DNA of 64,000 nucleotides from Halococcoides cellulosivorans (GTDB lineage Archaea; Halobacteriota; Halobacteria; Halobacteriales; Haloarculaceae). Positions within the stretch are counted from its first letter, which is position 1; each line of letters opens with the position of its first letter. The position numbers were made by a program, and so were the translations under genes. The notes under the pieces were generated by a model. The model did no database searches. It saw only the letters and a list, made by a program, of their open reading frames with translations, and was not told where the DNA came from. Positions 2,772-62,185 of the stretch are shown here, piece after piece. Where the stretch lies: the NCBI RefSeq assembly GCF_003058365.1, contig NZ_CP028858.1:682001-746000 (forward strand), written 5' to 3'.

Positions 2772-3529
2772 ATGCAGAATTCAAGGGAGAAAAAAAGGGA
2801 CGAATTGGTATTTTAGTAACCGATAAGAAAGGGTACGAGCACCAAATAGAATTGTCAAAGTCAGGGGAAGTAGAGTACCACGGAACCGACGACTATCCCC
2901 ACCACCCCGAAGACCGAACGCAGGAAGAACACGCGCTGATGGGCCAGGTCGAGGCCGTCGCCAAGTTCTACGCCCACAACCAGTTCCCGGAGGCAGACAT
3001 CCTCCATCCGATGTGGGACCCCGACCACGTCGACCGTGGCCTGGACGCCATCCTCAACTACCCGATGGACGAGTTTCTCCCCGCGTTCAGGGAGTATTAC
3101 GAGGCGTTGCGAGAGCCATTCTCGGTGATCGACGTCGACCGCGAGAACATCGACGAGTCGACGATCCTCGTTCACAAGACGTTCACGATCACCGACGACA
3201 ACCGCGTCGACGAGATCGAACCGCTCTGGATCAGCTATCGGGAGCCTGACGGCACCGAGAAGACGATCGGTGACCGGCCGACCGACTTCGAGGATCGCAT
3301 CCACCTGTTCATGCCGCCGCTTGCGTTCGACGAACAATTCGATTACGAGGCCGAGTTTACCGACGTTATCGTCACCAATCTGATGGCCCAGATTCGAGAT
3401 ATCTATCTCAACATGGGGCTGAAACCGCCAGAGGCCTACGACGTTGTGGGGAACGGCAAGCTGAAAATCCATGGTGACGGCATCGACACCCGACCGAGCG
3501 CGAGTGTCGACGACGTTGTCGATCGGTGA
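2768..3529 (+). CDS. Unknown 253-aa protein, paralogue of the gene at 1514
   Basis: Second copy of the family seen at 1514-2290. About 200 C-terminal residues are well conserved between the two (MWDP, REYYEALR, LMAQIRDIYLNMGL, HGDGID), while the first 50 residues are diverged and encoded by noticeably AT-richer DNA with lysine runs. The start codon overlaps the stop of the preceding gene, which implies translational coupling. It is the last gene of the module; the next supported gene starts beyond a 220-nt gap. Soluble, acidic, no recognised domain. Confidence 0.75.
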   Translation: MNAEFKGEKKGRIGILVTDKKGYEHQIELSKSGEVEYHGTDDYPHHPEDRTQEEHALMGQVEAVAKFYAHNQFPEADILHPMWDPDHVDRGLDAILNYPMDEFLPAFREYYEALREPFSVIDVDRENIDESTILVHKTFTITDDNRVDEIEPLWISYREPDGTEKTIGDRPTDFEDRIHLFMPPLAFDEQFDYEAEFTDVIVTNLMAQIRDIYLNMGLKPPEAYDVVGNGKLKIHGDGIDTRPSASVDDVVDR

Positions 3530-37810: not shown

Positions 37811-37885
37811 GGGTTGGTGGTCTAGTCCGGTTATGACGGCTCCTTCACACGGAGCAGGCCCCAGGTTCAACTCCTGGCCAACCCA
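37811..37885 (+). tRNA. tRNA-Val (CAC anticodon)
   Basis: 75 nt. The acceptor GGGTTGG pairs with CCAACCC followed by discriminator A, the anticodon stem-loop CTCCTTCACACGGAG gives CAC, and the T arm is CCAGGTTCAACTCCTGG. It reads GUG valine codons. It is followed after about 20 nt by a T-tract and the hairpin cassette. Confidence 0.96.
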
Positions 37886-37903: not shown

Positions 37904-37914
37904 ACCTTTTTCTG
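37904..37914 (+). terminator. T-tract after tRNA-Val
   Basis: ACCTTTTTCTG begins about 19 nt after the tRNA 3' end. Archaeal intrinsic termination needs only a T-rich tract, and the same sequence follows EF-2 in the second hairpin cassette. Confidence 0.55.
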
Positions 37915-38135
37915 TCGTTCGAGAGAGCTCCGCTCTCTCGTGATGACGAAAGAGCGCTCTGCGCTCTTTCGAACCACGTCGGGTCGCCTTCGGCGACCGC
38001 GTGGCGGCGGAAGCCGCCACGTCATTCGGTTGCGGGCCATATGGCCCGCAACCTGCTCCTTGAAAAATCTGGACCAAAAAGACCTCGACCTCGCTCCGCT
38101 CGGTCGAGTGATACGGCGGCCGGAGGCCGCCGTAT
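37904..38135 (+). repeat. Seven-hairpin cassette, copy 1
   Basis: Seven inverted repeats stand in a row between tRNA-Val and the serine-hydrolase gene: 37920-37940, 37947-37971, 37982-37998, 38001-38020, 38028-38053 (26-nt perfect palindrome), 38084-38108 and 38111-38135. Most have 7-11 bp arms and 3-4 nt loops (TCC, TCT, TTC, GGAA, GGA); the sixth is imperfect. The first 97 nt (37904-38000) recur in inverted orientation at 59451-59547 with one mismatch. An A-rich motif, GAAAAATCTGGACCAAAAAG, at 38062-38081 recurs in variant form in copy 2. Not a known IS or CRISPR structure. Confidence 0.85.
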
Positions 38136-38297
38136 GCGTGTTGGGCCCACAGCGTTCCCGGCGCGATTTCGAGACGGCGGAACCACCTCACCACCGCCGC
38201 CTGTGATCGTCAGCAGCGACTGCCGATCGGGCGGTATTACGAATCCAGAATGCTGCATTTATCATGTCGCGTGGGCCGCGCCCTGATGGTTAAATAC
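38136..38297. other. Spacer between hairpin cassette 1 and the serine-hydrolase gene
   Basis: No gene is seen. The right half is AT-richer, with a TTAAATA element near 38290. The serine-hydrolase gene converges from the right. Confidence 0.4.
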
Positions 38298-40265
38298 CTA
38301 CAACGGTATTATTCCGAGCACGGACAGTGGCCAGACGAACAGCACCGCGAATGCCGTCGCCAGCGTGTAGTGAACCCGGGCCAGACGGCCCCAGTACTCC
38401 TCACGCCAGGCGATGAGCGTCGCGGCGACGGCCCCGATCGTTCCGGCGAGCGCAATCCACCGGAGGATGAGTCCAGCCCGAAGCGCCAGCGACGGCGAGG
38501 CGGCCTCGGCGTTGAAGTTGATCCAGGCGAGCACGAAGATGGCCAGGACGACCAGCCAGAGCAGACTGACACCGCCGAGCAGCCACCGGGCTGCGCGCTC
38601 GCTGTCGGTCGGCGTGTCGTGGCCACCGCGTCGGCGTCGGATGGCCCCGCCGATCCCGGCCGCGACCACCGAGAGGAAGGCCATCACGCTCGCGGCGAGC
38701 AGCGCCTGGATCACTGTCAGCGACTCTGCGGCGGGGACGCGTTCGTAGGTCGCCGGCCCGAACGCGTGCCGGTACATGTGAGTCGCCCGTCCGTCCTCGT
38801 CGAACTCGAAGACGAGCATGTCGTTCCCGTCGGGGGCCAGGTAGACGCCTGGCTCGCGCTCGACCCACGTGCGCGTCCCCTCGCCCATCCGGGTCGTCGT
38901 GAGCTCACCCGCATCAGTCGCGCCGACAGTATACGTCCGGGTCGTCACGCCGAGGATCCGCTCCCAGGAGGACCCGGCGATCGTCAGGGATCGGTAGTCG
39001 CCGGCGAGTGCCTGGGCGCGTTCGGCCGCGCCGGCGGGTGCGGTCGGGGCCGATCCCGGCGCGTCAGCTCGTGGGTAGTACCGCTCTGCGAACGCATCGA
39101 GGAGGGCAGTCCGGGCCTGGTTCCCACCGGGGCTGTTGTAGACGACGAACAGCCCCGTGTCGTGGGCGGGAACGAGCGCGAGCAGGCTACTAAATCGGGG
39201 GGTCGTCCCCCAGTGGCCGACGGTGCGCTCGTCGGTGCGATCCATCTCGATGAATCCGTAGCCCATTCCGTTGAGGTTCGGGACGGCTGCGGATTTCGTC
39301 ACGTGCCGGCGCTGCATATCTCGGATGCTTTCGGCGGTGAGGAGTGCCGACTCGTCCTCGTCGAGGTGTGCGAGCATGAACTGACCCATGTCGGTCGCGG
39401 TCGTCCGCATCGACCCGCCCTCCGGCGGAAGCGTCCAGACGGGTGGCTCGTGGGCCTGGAACGAGCCGTCCCGAGCAGTGTACCCGATCGCCCGACGCTG
39501 TTCGAGGTCGGTCGGCAGCGGCTGGGCGTAGGTGGTGTCGTCCATGCCGAGCGGGCCGAAGATTCGCTCGTCAGCGTAGTCGGTGAATGCCATCCCGGAC
39601 TGCTCGGCGACGACGTGGCCCGCCAGGGCGGTCCCGTAGTTGGAGTATGCGACGTACTGGCCCGGGGGCCTGACGCGTGCGGGCTGGTGATCGGTGAGGA
39701 TCGCTTCCACCGATCGAATCTCACCCGGATCGTCGGTGACCATTCCCGCGACGCTGTCCTCGAAGCCCGCCGTGTGTGTTCCGAGGTGTTGGAGTGTGAC
39801 GGGCTCGGAGAACGTGTCTGGGACCGAAACGGTGGATTCGGTCAGGTACGCGTTGACGTCACGATCGAGGTCGAGGTGGCCGTCCTCGACGCCCTGCATT
39901 ACGGCCGTCCAGGTCACCAGTTTTCCCGTCGACCCGACACTGAAGACGGTCTCGTCGGCAACGACCGACCGCCCGGTGTCGAGATCGGCCATGCCGTACC
40001 CCCGTGCCAGCACGATCTCGCCGTCGGCCACGACGACGACGGCAGCGCCGGGGATCTGATACTCGTCGAGCTGGTCGGGCATCGTCTCGTCGAGCCAGGC
40101 CGTGAGCTCAGCTGACTCGATCTGATCGACTGTCGTGACGCGATCATTGTCAGAGACGACGCGATCCGGTGGTCCGGTGGATGGCGCTGCCATCACGATC
40201 GGGGCGGACAGCACGGCGGTGACGAGAACGAGCACGGCGGCGGTGTGAATGACGTGAAACTGCAT
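38298..40265 (-). CDS. Exported/membrane serine hydrolase, class C beta-lactamase-like
   Basis: 655 residues from the ATG at 40265, which places a hydrophobic signal segment (residues 6-28) at the N-terminus. The serine-hydrolase motifs are SVGSTGK (SxxK), YSNYG (YxN) and HWGTT (HxG). The C-terminal 170 residues contain four to five membrane helices. The catalytic domain would therefore be outside the cell, anchored by the C-terminal helices. Relatives include D-aminopeptidases, esterases and penicillin-binding-like proteins; the substrate is unknown and archaea lack murein. Confidence 0.85.
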   Translation of the reverse strand: MQFHVIHTAAVLVLVTAVLSAPIVMAAPSTGPPDRVVSDNDRVTTVDQIESAELTAWLDETMPDQLDEYQIPGAAVVVVADGEIVLARGYGMADLDTGRSVVADETVFSVGSTGKLVTWTAVMQGVEDGHLDLDRDVNAYLTESTVSVPDTFSEPVTLQHLGTHTAGFEDSVAGMVTDDPGEIRSVEAILTDHQPARVRPPGQYVAYSNYGTALAGHVVAEQSGMAFTDYADERIFGPLGMDDTTYAQPLPTDLEQRRAIGYTARDGSFQAHEPPVWTLPPEGGSMRTTATDMGQFMLAHLDEDESALLTAESIRDMQRRHVTKSAAVPNLNGMGYGFIEMDRTDERTVGHWGTTPRFSSLLALVPAHDTGLFVVYNSPGGNQARTALLDAFAERYYPRADAPGSAPTAPAGAAERAQALAGDYRSLTIAGSSWERILGVTTRTYTVGATDAGELTTTRMGEGTRTWVEREPGVYLAPDGNDMLVFEFDEDGRATHMYRHAFGPATYERVPAAESLTVIQALLAASVMAFLSVVAAGIGGAIRRRRGGHDTPTDSERAARWLLGGVSLLWLVVLAIFVLAWINFNAEAASPSLALRAGLILRWIALAGTIGAVAATLIAWREEYWGRLARVHYTLATAFAVLFVWPLSVLGIIPL

Positions 40266-40362
40266 GTGGGCTGGGGTCGGTCTGTGGGTGATCGAGCAGG
40301 CGATCGATATCGATGCGAGGCGTGCAGGGTGAACGGGGGCCGTCCGGCGATCGCTCGTCGGG

Positions 40363-41013
40363 TCAGGCGGGGCGACGGTCGTCAACGTGGTTGGCACCGA
40401 CGAGTGCGCCGCCGACGGCGATCAACCAGATCATCACGGGATAGATAATCATCCGCTCGGTCCCGCCGTGGCCGATCGGCCCGAACGCGGCGGTGGTTCC
40501 GGCGTCACCGACGACCATCAGGCCGATGAAGACGAGGCCGACCACGCCGGCGACCACCGAGAGCGCACGCATCGCGCCCCCCAGTACGGACGCGCTGCCG
40601 ATCGCTTCCACGTTGAAAAACACGAACGCGAGCACTGCGGCGAGGCTGTGGAGGCCGCCGGTGTCGAGGGGGAACAGGCCGGCGCCGATGGCACCGACAC
40701 TCGCGATGGCGAAGATGGCGAGTAGCCATCCCCTCCCGTGGAGACGGTAGAAGGCGTATCCGCCGAGCAGGTTGATGACACCGGCGACGATCAGCGAGAG
40801 GTTGAACAGGAGCGCAGTCTCCGGGAACACGCCGAGGTCGCTGATGGCCCCGCCCTGAAAGTCGTAGCCGGAGACCATCGCCGCCGCGAGCATGATCGCA
40901 GTCATGAACTGGGCCGCGAGCGCGATGAATGCGATACCGGCCAGTGTCCGGGGATCGACGGCGATGCCGCGAATGTTGAAAACCGAGGTCGCAGATCGTT
41001 GGGTGTGTGCCAT
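40363..41013 (-). CDS. DUF998 family membrane protein
   Basis: 216 residues with about six membrane helices. The family signature GGAISDLGVFPE follows the first helix, and HSLAAVLAFVFFN lies in the centre. DUF998 proteins are distantly related to Frag1/cytochrome b561-like membrane proteins and have no firm role. Same strand as the serine hydrolase, about 100 nt apart. A strong AT-rich box lies just upstream. Confidence 0.85.
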   Translation of the reverse strand: MAHTQRSATSVFNIRGIAVDPRTLAGIAFIALAAQFMTAIMLAAAMVSGYDFQGGAISDLGVFPETALLFNLSLIVAGVINLLGGYAFYRLHGRGWLLAIFAIASVGAIGAGLFPLDTGGLHSLAAVLAFVFFNVEAIGSASVLGGAMRALSVVAGVVGLVFIGLMVVGDAGTTAAFGPIGHGGTERMIIYPVMIWLIAVGGALVGANHVDDRRPA

Positions 41014-59087: not shown

Positions 59088-59311
59088 GCGGTCCCATGGC
59101 CGCAGATCCTCATTAAGATGGGGTCACAGACTCGCGGAGCGGTCGGTCGAGAGCAGGTCGATCGCTTCGGTCTTGACCGCATCCGCGCTCGCTCGCCGTC
59201 GTCTCGAATATACCTACGACGGATCGAAAACGGCCCGGTCGATCGTCACCGACTGGTTGTCACTCGTACCGGCTACGGTGGCAGTAGCGGCCGCGGTCGC
59301 GGCCCGCGCAT
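59088..59311. other. Spacer between the membrane-protein gene and hairpin cassette 2
   Basis: No gene is seen; an open plus-strand frame runs through here and the hairpins but has no support. A further GC-rich inverted repeat (GGCCGCGGTCGCGGCC, 59289-59304) adjoins the cassette. The promoter for the 120-aa membrane protein should lie just right of 59087. Confidence 0.45.
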
Positions 59312-59547
59312 CCCGCTCGCCGTGGCGAGCGGGTTCACCGGAATCGCCGGACGGCGATTCCGGGTCTTTTTGGTCGAGCTTTTTCGAGTCGAGCGGAACC
59401 GAAGGTTCCGCTGACCATGCGAACGGACGCTTCGCGTCCGTGAGCAGAGAGCGGTCGCCGCAGGCGACCCGACGTGGTTCGAAAGAGCGCAGAGCGCTCT
59501 TTCGTCATCACGAGAGAGCGGAGCTCTCTCGAACGACAGAAAAAGGT
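59312..59547 (-). repeat. Seven-hairpin cassette, copy 2
   Basis: Read on the minus strand from EF-2, it has the T-tract, then hairpins at 59511-59531, 59480-59504 and 59453-59469 (near-identical to copy 1). Two locus-specific hairpins follow (59423-59441, 59392-59412), then an A-rich motif (59360-59385, resembling 38062-38087), then two more locus-specific hairpins (59338-59363, 59312-59333). Stems are 7-11 bp with mostly 3-nt loops. The A-rich motif lies at nearly the same distance from the T-tract as in copy 1 (about 160 nt). Confidence 0.85.
59537..59547 (-). terminator. T-tract after EF-2
   Basis: ACCTTTTTCTG on the minus strand lies about 20 nt after the EF-2 stop codon and is identical to the T-tract after tRNA-Val. 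It fits an archaeal intrinsic terminator. Confidence 0.55.
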
Positions 59548-59567
59548 CGTCTGGAAAAGGTCGTCGT

Positions 59568-61748
59568 TTAGAAGTAATCGATGCCGGCGGGCAGTTCGAG
59601 CTTCATGCCTTTGCGCTCGCGGATCTGTGTGATGATGTCGGGCTGGAGGTTGTCGGCCAGCACGCGGAAGCCCGCGTTCTCGGTGTTCCAGGAGGCGCGG
59701 CCTTCGGTCGCCGACCGAATGTCGCTCGAAAATCCGATCATCTCCTCGACGGGCGCGATGCCCTCGATCACCATGACGTCGCCTTCCTGGTACATGTCGT
59801 CGACCCGGCCACGTCGGCCCTGAATCTCGCCCGATGCCGCGCCCATGTGTTCGCTGGGCACGTCGATCCGGACGTCCTGAATCGGCTCCAGGAGGCGGAT
59901 CTCGGCGTCGATCAGCGCGTTGTGGACGGCCTGGCGGACGGCGGGGACGACCTGGGCGGGACCGCGGTGGATGGCGTCCTCGTGCAGGCGAGCGTCGTGC
60001 AATCGGAGCAGCGACCCCTGGACCGGTTCGGCGGCCAGCGGCCCGTCGTCGAGGGCCTCTTCGAGCCCCTCGATGACGAGTTCCATCGTCTCGTTGAGGT
60101 GCTGAATCCCCTTCGTGTCGTCGATCAGGATGTTCGTCCGGTGGATCGTCTCGACCTCCTGGGAGGCCTCCTTCTCGAGGCCGGCGTCCTGGAGGGCTTC
60201 ACGCCGTTCGAGTTCGGGCATGTCCATCGACGCCTCGCCCATCTTGATCGTCTCGACGACGTCCTCGGGCAGCGGCTCGACGGTGATGTAAAACCGGTTG
60301 TGTCGGTTCGGAGAGATGCCCTCGACCTCTCGCGAGGCGGTCTGGGGGGCCTCGCGGAAGACGACGATCGGTTCACCGGTCGTGATCGGAATGCCCTGGT
60401 TGCGCTCGATGCGCTGGCCGATCACCTCGAGGTGGAGTTCGCCCTGTCCGGAGATGAGGTGCTCGCCGGTGTCCTCGTTGATCTCCACGTGGATCGTCGG
60501 GTCTTCTTTCGAGACCTGCTGGAGCGTCTCGATCAGCTTCGGCAGGTCGTCCATGCGCTGGGCTTCGACACTTTTCGTGATGACGGGCTCCGAGAGGTGC
60601 TCGATCGACTCGAAGGGCGTCATCTCGACGCTACTGACCGTCGAGCCCGCGATGGCGTCTTTCAGCCCCGTGACGGCGGCGATGTTCCCCGCGGGCACGC
60701 GACTCACTTCCTCGCGTTCACCACCCATGAACAGCCCGACCGACTGGAGGCGGTTCGTCCCGGCCGTCCCCGAGACGTAGAGGTCCTGGCCCTCTTCGAG
60801 CGTGCCAGAGAAGACACGACCCGTCGCAATCTCGCCGGCGTGGGGGTCCATCGAGATGTCCGTCACCATGAAGACGACCTCGCCGTCCTCGTCGACGAAG
60901 CGCATGCTCTCCGCGAGTTCCGAGTCCGCGTCGCCACGCCAGACCGTCGGAATCCGACGGGGCTGGGCGTCGACGGGGTTCGGGAAGTGCTCACAGACCA
61001 TGTCGAGGACGACGTCCGAGAGTGGCGTCTGCTCGTGGAGTTCCTGGCGCTTGTCCGCCCGCTCCAGATCGATGATGTCACCGAAGTCCATCCCCGTGGC
61101 GACCATCGACGGCTTCGAGACGCCCCACTTGTAGAGTGCGGAGCCAAAAGCGACCGTCCCCTCGTCGACCGAGACCGTCCAGTCGCGATCCCAGTCCTCG
61201 GTCATCCCGCGGATGAGTTCGTTCACGTCGTGGATGACTGCGAGCAGGCGTTCCTGCATCTCCTCGGGGCCCTCCTGCAGTTCCGAGATCAGCCGGTCGA
61301 CCTTGTTGATAAAGAGGGTGGGCTTGACGCCTTCTCGCAGCGCCTGCCGAAGCACGGTCTCGGTCTGGGGCATCGCGCCCTCGACGGCGTCGACGACCAC
61401 CATCGCGCCGTCGACCGCGCGCATCGCGCGTGTCACGTCGCCACCGAAGTCGACGTGGCCCGGCGTGTCGATCAGGTTGATGAGGTGGTTTTTCTCATCG
61501 TACTCGTGGGTCATCGAGACGTTTGCCGCGTCGATGGTGATCCCACGCTCCTGTTCGTCCTCTTCGGTGTCCATCGCGAGCTGTTCGCCCGCGGTGTCCT
61601 CGGAGATCATCCCTGCCCCCGCGAGCAGGTTGTCCGTCAGCGTCGTCTTCCCGTGGTCGACGTGGGCGGCGATCGCGATGTTGCGAATCTGTTCGGGCTG
61701 GTCCATCAGCCCCTCACATTCCTCGACGATCTGCGAGCGTCGGCTCAT
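59568..61748 (-). CDS. fusA: Translation elongation factor 2 (aEF-2)
   Basis: 726 residues, the archaeal EF-2 length. G-domain motifs [28 protein letters not shown] and NKVDRL are present, and domain IV carries the diphthamide loop ([16 protein letters not shown]). It drives GTP-dependent translocation on the ribosome. Upstream on this strand lies a 57-bp repeat array. Downstream is a T-tract and a hairpin cassette, the same 3' context as tRNA-Val. Confidence 0.98.
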
Positions 61749-61787: not shown

Positions 61788-61829
61788 GTTTCCGTGTGAA
61801 GCGTGTCAAAGACACGCGAACACGGAAAC
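61788..61829. promoter_or_regulatory. Long hairpin at the EF-2 edge of the array
   Basis: Outer 10-bp arms (GTTTCCGTGT / ACACGGAAAC) and inner 7-bp arms (GCGTGTC / GACACGC) surround an AAA loop, with a 3/2-nt internal bulge. The outer left arm is an inverted partial copy of the repeat unit. It lies 40-80 nt before the EF-2 start. Confidence 0.6.
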
Positions 61830-62185
61830 GAGCGGTGGGGTGGTGGATGCGTTGGAAGCGTGTCAAAGACACGCGAACACGGAAACGAGCGGTGGGGTGG
61901 TGGATGCGTTGGAAGCGTGTCAAAGACACGCGAACACGGAAACGAGCGGTGGGGTGGTGGATGCGTTGGAAGCGTGTCAAAGACACGCGAACACGGAAAC
62001 GAGCGGTGGGGTGGTCGATTCGTTGGAAGCGTGTCAAAGACATGCGAACACGGAAACGAGCGGTGGGGTGGTGGATGCGTTGGATGCGTGTCAAAGACAC
62101 GCGAACACGGAACCGAGCGGTGGGGTGGTGGATGCGTTGGATGCGTGTCAAAGACACGCGAACACGGAACCGAGCGGTGGGGTGG
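61799..62185. repeat. 57-bp tandem repeat array (six full units plus one partial)
   Basis: Units start at 61799, 61856, 61913, 61970, 62027, 62084 and 62141 (last about 45 bp). Each contains GCGTGTC-AAA-GACACGC, a 7-bp hairpin, and a G/T-rich second half. Units differ by only a few bases: unit 5 has GACATGC, which keeps a G-U pair in RNA. Because 57 is a multiple of 3, long frames run through it on both strands, but none has a supported start. There are no unique spacers, so it is not CRISPR. Confidence 0.93.

What the first reader, a model, noticed from the sequence alone, without database searches (positions are those of the whole stretch)
37904..38135. Seven-hairpin intergenic cassette downstream of tRNA-Val
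Seven closely spaced inverted repeats follow a T-tract 19 nt after the tRNA. Arms are mostly 7-11 bp with 3-4 nt loops, one is a 26-nt perfect palindrome, and the sixth is imperfect. Stem sequences differ between hairpins but the format is constant. No transposase, terminal repeats or spacer structure is present. The order is three hairpins, two hairpins, an A-rich motif (38062-38087), then two hairpins. It looks like a structured RNA or DNA element rather than a terminator, which needs one T-tract at most.
Basis: seen in the sequence. Interest (0 to 1): 0.85.

Follow-up and report, generated by a model that had tools for sequence, protein, structure and literature searches.

The report
Mobile hairpins nested in archaeal terminator
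The seven hairpins are a short two-way transcription stop signal of salt-loving archaea into which two small, apparently mobile double-hairpin DNA pieces have jumped; related pieces occur in most haloarchaeal genomes examined, so this opens a little-described kind of mobile DNA at gene ends to direct testing.

Summary
The hairpins are real: six perfect ones and one imperfect, against 0.06 expected. The cassette is not unique. It is a composite. The base is a terminator-like element that follows gene and tRNA 3' ends across Halobacteria: CCACCTTTTTC, one hairpin, AAAAA-N8-AAAAA, two hairpins, ATGC. The pattern T5...A5-N7-11-A5 occurs in 122 of 145 genomes. Its T tracts face both ways. Into the interval between them two double-hairpin modules were inserted: M1 (37915-37976) and M2 (38001-38056). 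Cutting both out leaves 59 of 62 bases identical to module-less copies in the same genome. M1 occurs in 87 of 145 haloarchaeal genomes and, by exact match, in 0 of 241 genomes of other classes. M1 stems turn over but stay Watson-Crick: 1399 pairs against 15 others, one of them G.T. That points to DNA, not RNA. Two genomes 98.8% identical at one locus differ by a 55-nt double-hairpin insertion between two T tracts, and a locus with and without the whole element was found within one genus. The mobilising enzyme, and any benefit to the host, are unknown. Closest known: SMR-A repeats of Haloquadratum and REP/BIME elements.

The parts
37811..37885 (+). tRNA-Val (CAC), the gene upstream of the element
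   Evidence: ARAGORN and Rfam RF00005, 62.1 bits
37890..37912 (+). Two T-rich tracts, GACCTTTCTC and ACCACCTTTTTC; T5C at 37907-37912, the left end of the base element
   Evidence: Sequence; T5C gave 95% termination in a Haloferax volcanii reporter (PMC7237163, passages)
37915..37976 (+). Module M1, 62 nt: foot, hairpin 37920-37940, linker TGATGA, hairpin 37947-37971, foot AACCA(C)
   Evidence: Absent from sister copies at exactly this point; 87 of 145 genomes hold the M1 linker
37982..37998 (+). The base element's own hairpin GGTCGCC-TTC-GGCGACC
   Evidence: Shared with short sister copies L004, L005, L007, L009
38001..38056 (+). Module M2, 56 nt: hairpin 38000-38021, linker TCATTC, hairpin 38028-38053 (the 26-nt palindrome)
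   Evidence: Absent from sister copies at this point; linker pattern in 7 of 145 genomes
38062..38084 (-). GAAAAATCTGGACCAAAAAGACC; on the minus strand a double T5 tract facing the convergent gene
   Evidence: 12 places in own genome at <=3 mismatches, 0 for the reversed pattern
38085..38107 (.). Imperfect hairpin TCGACCTCGCTCCGCTCGGTCGA, upstream of the double T5 on the minus strand
   Evidence: Fold
38111..38137 (.). Last perfect hairpin and right end ATGC of the base element
   Evidence: Same right end after the last hairpin in L002-L008, unrelated sequence beyond
38298..40397 (-). Convergent protein gene, 699-aa ORF, beta-lactamase/serine-hydrolase-like by eye
   Evidence: ORF list; name not tested
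59308..59568 (-). Second copy of the composite element in this window, directly after the aEF-2 stop codon, with M1 and other hairpins
   Evidence: 95% identity over 113 nt; sequence

Best explanation
The cassette is a composite of two layers. Layer 1 is a bidirectional terminator-like element: T5C right after the tRNA stops rightward transcription, and a double T5 on the other strand, preceded by hairpins, stops leftward transcription from the convergent gene. Between them lies a short interval outside the mature transcripts of either side. Layer 2 is two small non-autonomous palindromic modules (M1 and M2, each two hairpins around a short linker) that inserted into this interval, as related modules insert into other palindromes, IS605-type ends included. 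Stems stay perfect because they are used, copied or repaired as folded DNA, not because of RNA function. Shown: the composite build, the wide distribution, the near absence of G.T pairs, insertion polymorphism of a module and of the whole element at other loci. Inferred: termination (motif and position only), mobilisation as single-stranded DNA by a transposase in trans, lack of a host function.
For: Removing M1 and M2 leaves 59 of 62 identities, no gaps, to L004 and to L005, and 58 identities with 3 mismatches to L009. M1 linker: 87 of 145 class genomes, 0 reversed-control hits; all 80 listed of 115 stretches found among 84,980 species are haloarchaeal. M1: linker base 5 and right-foot base 4 covary perfectly, TGATGA with C in 61 of 61 rows, TGATCA with G in 16 of 16 (8 palindromic loci counted on both strands). 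G085 and G137, 3454 identities and 41 mismatches, differ by one 55-nt double-hairpin insertion between two T5 tracts, with ACGT on both sides. The whole element with a copied gene end is in 3 of 8 genomes of one genus at one locus and absent from 5, as is the copy. aEF-2 3' ends: 11 of 30 loci carry an element, with different stems. M1 lies next to TnpB-type genes in L147 and L165.
Against: No transcript data were available. No enzyme was tied to the modules: the two TnpA genes of this genome are not flanked by a canonical M1, though L294 has a degenerate M1-like double hairpin near its end. M1 has the same place relative to T5 in several genera (L001, L022, L023, L151), which recombination between elements could also explain. 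Perfect linker-foot covariation and conserved stem bases show constraint that a purely decaying repeat would not keep. M2 rests on few copies (7 of 145 genomes). The base element's duplication of gene ends, 22-227 nt, fits no transposase known to me.
Confidence: 0.7

Rival explanations
1. Host-serving DNA structure: the palindromes between convergent terminators are kept because they form cruciforms or protein sites that block read-through, relieve supercoiling or mark gene ends, as proposed for REP/BIME.
For: The base format is class-wide and sits at gene ends; inner hairpins are Watson-Crick, 395 pairs against 6 others; M1 feet and linker are constrained.
Against: Elements are absent at most orthologous sites (19 of 30 aEF-2 loci; 29 of 30 tRNA-Val loci) and hairpin number varies from one to seven or more. 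The multi-hairpin state looks derived from the one-hairpin state.
Confidence: 0.15
2. A structured non-coding RNA or a 3' UTR RNA structure.
For: Strong fold; M1 has conserved single-stranded linkers and feet and variable tips, as many structured RNAs do.
Against: One G.T among 1414 M1 stem positions and one among 401 in base hairpins; the hairpins follow T5C; no Rfam family over its cut-off; M1 also occurs in the reverse orientation beside the element's A tracts (L030).
Confidence: 0.07
3. Remnant or attachment region of an integrative element that targets tRNA and gene 3' ends.
For: 8 of 12 own-genome core copies follow an intact tRNA within 44-303 nt; copies of tRNA or gene 3' ends flank elements; a restriction-modification gene lies between two tRNA-Leu-plus-element copies.
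Against: Copied ends come from many unrelated genes and vary from 22 to 227 nt, unlike one att core. I examined one interval between element copies, and by Pfam only its largest ORF, which has no integrase domain. The tRNA-Val copy in question shows no such duplication.
Confidence: 0.07

Closest known systems
SMR-A small mobile repeats of Haloquadratum walsbyi (HqIRS42, HqIRS43, HqIRS55; PMC3119063, section 25 and passages read)
   Same: Short, transposase-free, inverted ends, no clear target duplication for M1, found inside palindromes at ends of IS605-type elements
   Different: SMR-A are about 110 bp; M1 is 56-68 nt with feet, has a co-varying linker and foot, is spread over Halobacteria, and here lies inside a terminator element. 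Sequence similarity to the HqIRS families was not tested
REP/BIME and GTAG- or CGTC-tagged palindromes of bacteria (PMC3733652, passages read)
   Same: Extragenic palindromes in head-to-head pairs with a conserved unpaired foot
   Different: M1 foot is GTCGTT/AACSAC, not GTAG or CGTC; archaeal; stem sequence turns over while linker and feet stay; no RAYT partner found
Haloarchaeal T-stretch terminators (PMC7237163, passages read)
   Same: T5C motif at the gene end
   Different: Here T tracts on both strands bound a palindromic interval of conserved layout, with hairpins after the T tract on one strand
PATEs (palindrome-associated elements related to IS605 ends; PMC3119063, passages read)
   Same: Short elements built around palindromes
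   Different: PATEs derive from IS605 ends and cause no target duplication; the base element here carries T tracts and in 32 of 86 cases is flanked by a direct repeat, mostly a copied gene end

Membership tests
SMR-A small mobile repeats | About 110 bp long | tested here: not met
   M1 is 62 nt between its insertion points here, 56-68 nt with feet in the rows
SMR-A small mobile repeats | Inverted terminal repeats | tested here: met
   GTCGTT/AACSAC feet: left foot GTCGTT or GTCGTC in 70 of 77 rows
SMR-A small mobile repeats | No target duplication | tested here: inconclusive
   None needed for M1 here; at most GC for M2; another module shows ACGT on both sides
SMR-A small mobile repeats | Inserts into near-terminal palindromes of IS605-type elements and PATEs | tested here: inconclusive
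   L147 and L165 lie 60 and 174 nt from TnpB-type ORFs; L148 and L154 share flanks with the TnpA end in L293; most M1 contexts were not classified
SMR-A small mobile repeats | Sequence similarity to HqIRS42, HqIRS43 or HqIRS55 | not tested
   Their sequences were not read
REP/BIME with RAYT | GTAG or CGTC foot | tested here: not met
   Feet GTCGTT/AACSAC
REP/BIME with RAYT | Partner TnpA flanked by the same palindromes | tested here: not met
   Two Y1_Tnp genes in own genome, no canonical M1 or CCACCTTTTT end in their loci; a degenerate M1-like pair near L294
Haloarchaeal transcription terminator | T5C motif just after the gene | tested here: met
   T5C at 37907-37912; left T5 followed by C in 49 of 86 elements, but also after 13 of 20 exact T5 runs in the window
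Haloarchaeal transcription terminator | Transcripts end there | not testable with these tools
   No RNA data
Known RNA family (Rfam) | Match above the curated score over the cassette | tested here: not met
   Only tRNA passes; best other 21.9 bits against a cut-off of 229

The most novel reading that the evidence does not exclude
Gene 3' ends of Halobacteria are colonised by a class-wide, mobile two-way terminator that copies the 3' end of the convergent gene when it arrives (22-227 nt) and then serves as landing pad for nested double-hairpin modules moving as folded single-stranded DNA. The copied end, antisense to the convergent gene and followed 3-15 nt later by CTTTTT, would give the opposite transcript a 3' tail complementary to its neighbour's mRNA. 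In each of five homologous locus pairs, four of them across genera, it matches its own neighbour better than the neighbours match each other, as an antisense role, or gene conversion, would predict.
Probability: 0.25. Interest if true: 0.85.

Novelty: new variant of a known kind. Interest (0 to 1): 0.62.

Why it matters
If right, many haloarchaeal intergenic hairpins are not RNAs but small mobile DNA that shelters between convergent terminators. Occupied and empty sites within one genus, and one fresh insertion between near-identical loci, make the mechanism testable in laboratory haloarchaea. It also warns against reading perfect, compensated stems as proof of functional RNA: absence of G.U pairs and swapping of whole hairpins point the other way.

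Tried and rejected
Exact core motif in 84,980 species: 0 stretches; the exact motif is local, the format is not. Viral collections: 17 stretches with the exact M1 linker in IMG/VR; those printed had no hairpin pair and look like chance. One M2-linker hit in IMG/VR was not followed. GenBank phages: no match. Plasmids: 10 records, all haloarchaeal. Rfam at permissive threshold: nothing near a cut-off. Perfect-stem counts inside base elements understate the hairpins: 41 of 86 have a stem >=6 against 5.8% in shuffles, so folding energy was used too: median z -2.05, 46 of 86 at or below -2. Casposons also target tRNA and aEF-2 3' ends (recalled, not tested); the variable copy length argues against a fixed target duplication. 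Tandem duplication of gene end plus element instead of insertion: possible for L139 and some others, but at the L240 locus the genomes without the element hold a single gene end. G070 at the L229 locus is not a clean empty site: it keeps one element hairpin and may be a deletion. No structure prediction or covariance model was made.

Full report
WHAT IS THERE. Between tRNA-Val (37811-37885) and a convergent ORF (38298-40397, minus strand) there are six perfect hairpins and one imperfect one. Five hundred dinucleotide shuffles give 0.062 such hairpins on average, at most 1. Folding z is -10.4 (RNA) and -11.2 (DNA). In the 64-kb window only two other 232-nt stretches hold four or more such hairpins: 59335 (six; the second copy of the element) and 61771 (four; overlapping a 57-nt tandem repeat).

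A FAMILY IN ITS OWN GENOME. A search of the window's genome gives 18 matches to the 355-nt query, some of them parts of one copy. The core motif has 12 places at up to 3 mismatches, 0 for the reversed pattern. Eight of the 12 lie 44-303 nt downstream of an intact tRNA gene. A ninth (L017) is 406 nt from the nearest tRNA that ARAGORN found. L015 follows a tRNA-Leu 3' fragment by eye. L011 follows aEF-2, and L009 has no tRNA. The copies share a layout but not all hairpins: ACCACCTTTTTC, hairpin(s), two A5 tracts 8 nt apart, hairpin, GTGAA, hairpin, ATGC. Beyond ATGC the sequences differ.

THE BASE ELEMENT IS CLASS-WIDE AND LOOKS LIKE A TWO-WAY TERMINATOR. The first query matches 32 of 39 genomes, own included. 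The pattern CTTTTT-N20-50-AAAAA-N7-11-AAAAA matches in 122 of 145 Halobacteria genomes; the reversed control has 12 hits in all, by my count of the table. From the loci taken I extracted 86 such elements from 82 loci, not a random sample. An acid-rich ORF ends within 250 nt on the left in 47, and in 26 of those only 2-8 nt before CTTTTT. A convergent ORF ends within 450 nt on the right in 62. The left T5 is followed by C in 49 of 86, and the minus-strand T5 nearest the convergent gene in 53 of 86; in the window itself exact T5 runs are followed by C in 13 of 20 cases, so C after T5 is not special. T5C gave 95% termination in a Haloferax volcanii reporter (PMC7237163, passages). That these tracts terminate here is inference.

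ORTHOLOGOUS SITES. Downstream of aEF-2, 11 of 30 loci shown carry an element by eye (two with T4 instead of T5), with different stems; 19 do not. Thirty loci were fetched of 39 genomes with the gene. Two genomes of one genus (L052, L054) share the last hairpin but not the others, and L052 has a palindrome with perfect 29-bp arms that include its T tract. Downstream of tRNA-Val only the own genome, 1 of 30 loci, has the element by eye; two loci are cut short by contig ends.

THE SEVEN-HAIRPIN STATE IS A COMPOSITE. Cutting 37915-37976 (M1) and 38001-38056 (M2) from the cassette leaves a one-hairpin element identical at 59 of 62 positions, no gaps, to L004 and to L005, with 57 identities to L007 and 58 to L009; four more distant copies give 36-50. 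So hairpins 1+2 and 4+5 are two inserted double hairpins, and hairpin 3 is the original one.

M1. The linker TCTCGTGATGACGAAA (<=1 mismatch) occurs in 87 of 145 genomes, reversed control 0 in all. The exact linker is in 14 of 53 own, family and order genomes and in 0 of 241 other genomes of the phylum. A pattern with 28 fixed bases finds 115 stretches among 84,980 species; all 80 listed are haloarchaea. I collected 77 M1 rows, 69 distinct loci because eight palindromic ones count on both strands. Feet, linker and stem bases are nearly constant, stem tips vary, loops are mostly 3 nt with 40 different sequences. Linker base 5 and right-foot base 4 always complement each other: G with C in 61 of 61 rows, C with G in 16 of 16. 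Stems hold 1399 Watson-Crick pairs and 15 others, one of them G.T. The finder allowed at most one non-pair per hairpin, so hairpins with more wobbles were missed; but if RNA pairing were selected, most of the 15 should be G.T. In base-element hairpins (55 of 86 usable) there are 395 Watson-Crick pairs, 1 G.T, 3 A.C and 2 C.C.

MODULES MOVE. G137 and G085 share a locus (L411, L412) at 3454 identities and 41 mismatches. In G085 a 55-nt stretch with two hairpins, the second imperfect, is added between two T5 tracts, with ACGT on both sides. M1 also sits beside TnpB-type genes (L147, L165; Pfam PF07282), and in L148 and L154 it interrupts a sequence that the TnpA locus L293 has without it (by eye). 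SMR-A repeats of Haloquadratum are described as inserting within near-terminal palindromes of IS605-type elements (PMC3119063, section 25).

THE BASE ELEMENT CAN ARRIVE WITH A COPIED GENE END. In 32 of 86 elements a long direct repeat flanks the T5-A5 core (score >=16), against 0.8% of 258 mispaired controls. By ORF score the repeat is the 3' end of the right-hand, convergent gene in about 29; L135 and L136 are tRNA 3' ends and L139 is a tandem copy of the element itself. The copy ends 3-15 nt before CTTTTT and is 22-227 nt long. At the L240 locus, of eight genomes of one genus three have element plus copied end at the same point and five have neither. Five homologous pairs of such loci exist; in each pair the two copies within a genome (84-100% identical) are closer than the functional ends between genomes (73-89%). 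That fits renewal by gene conversion or repeated insertion, or selection on the copy. The cassette in question shows no such copy.

HOW IT PROBABLY WORKS. T5C ends the tRNA transcript; the minus-strand T5 pair, preceded by hairpins, ends the transcript of the convergent gene. The interval between is outside both transcripts and is a safe place for insertions. Double-hairpin modules entered it. Movement as folded single-stranded DNA with a Y1 transposase in trans is the mechanism I think most likely, by analogy with IS200/IS605 and REP elements; no enzyme was shown. Perfect stems without G.T could be kept by the transposase's need, by template switching, or by both.

NOVELTY. Small palindromic mobile repeats are a known kind. 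I found no description of this terminator-anchored, nested, class-wide form in searches, which cover open-access papers only and were mostly seen as listings. Hence: new variant of a known kind.

Noticed in passing
window 61798-62185: 6.8 copies of a 57-nt tandem repeat (97% matches) just upstream of the aEF-2 gene.
   Followed up: no
L295 (G000:C1:1678900-1685600): A 1381-aa Eco57I/MmeI-type restriction-modification protein gene lies between a tRNA-Leu with its element and a tRNA-Leu 3' fragment with another element copy. In L111 the gene end copied beside the element has a similar C-terminus by eye.
   Followed up: partly
L003-L007 and L086, L090, L092, L094, L097, L098, L100, L102: Between a tRNA gene and what follows there is an inverted copy and then a direct copy of that tRNA's own 3' end, often round a GGGAACG...GTGAC-type loop; seen in many haloarchaea by eye. 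Origin unexplained.
   Followed up: no
L052 (downstream of aEF-2): A palindrome with perfect 29-bp arms takes in the T tract and the gene-end flank, as if the left end had been copied back on itself.
   Followed up: no
L003, L006, L019: The last hairpin of the element has further hairpins nested in its loop.
   Followed up: no
L139; G078:C21:14583-14788; G107:C3:827686-827899; G129:C1:2115259-2115472: Tandem copies of the base element, about 150-190 bp apart.
   Followed up: no
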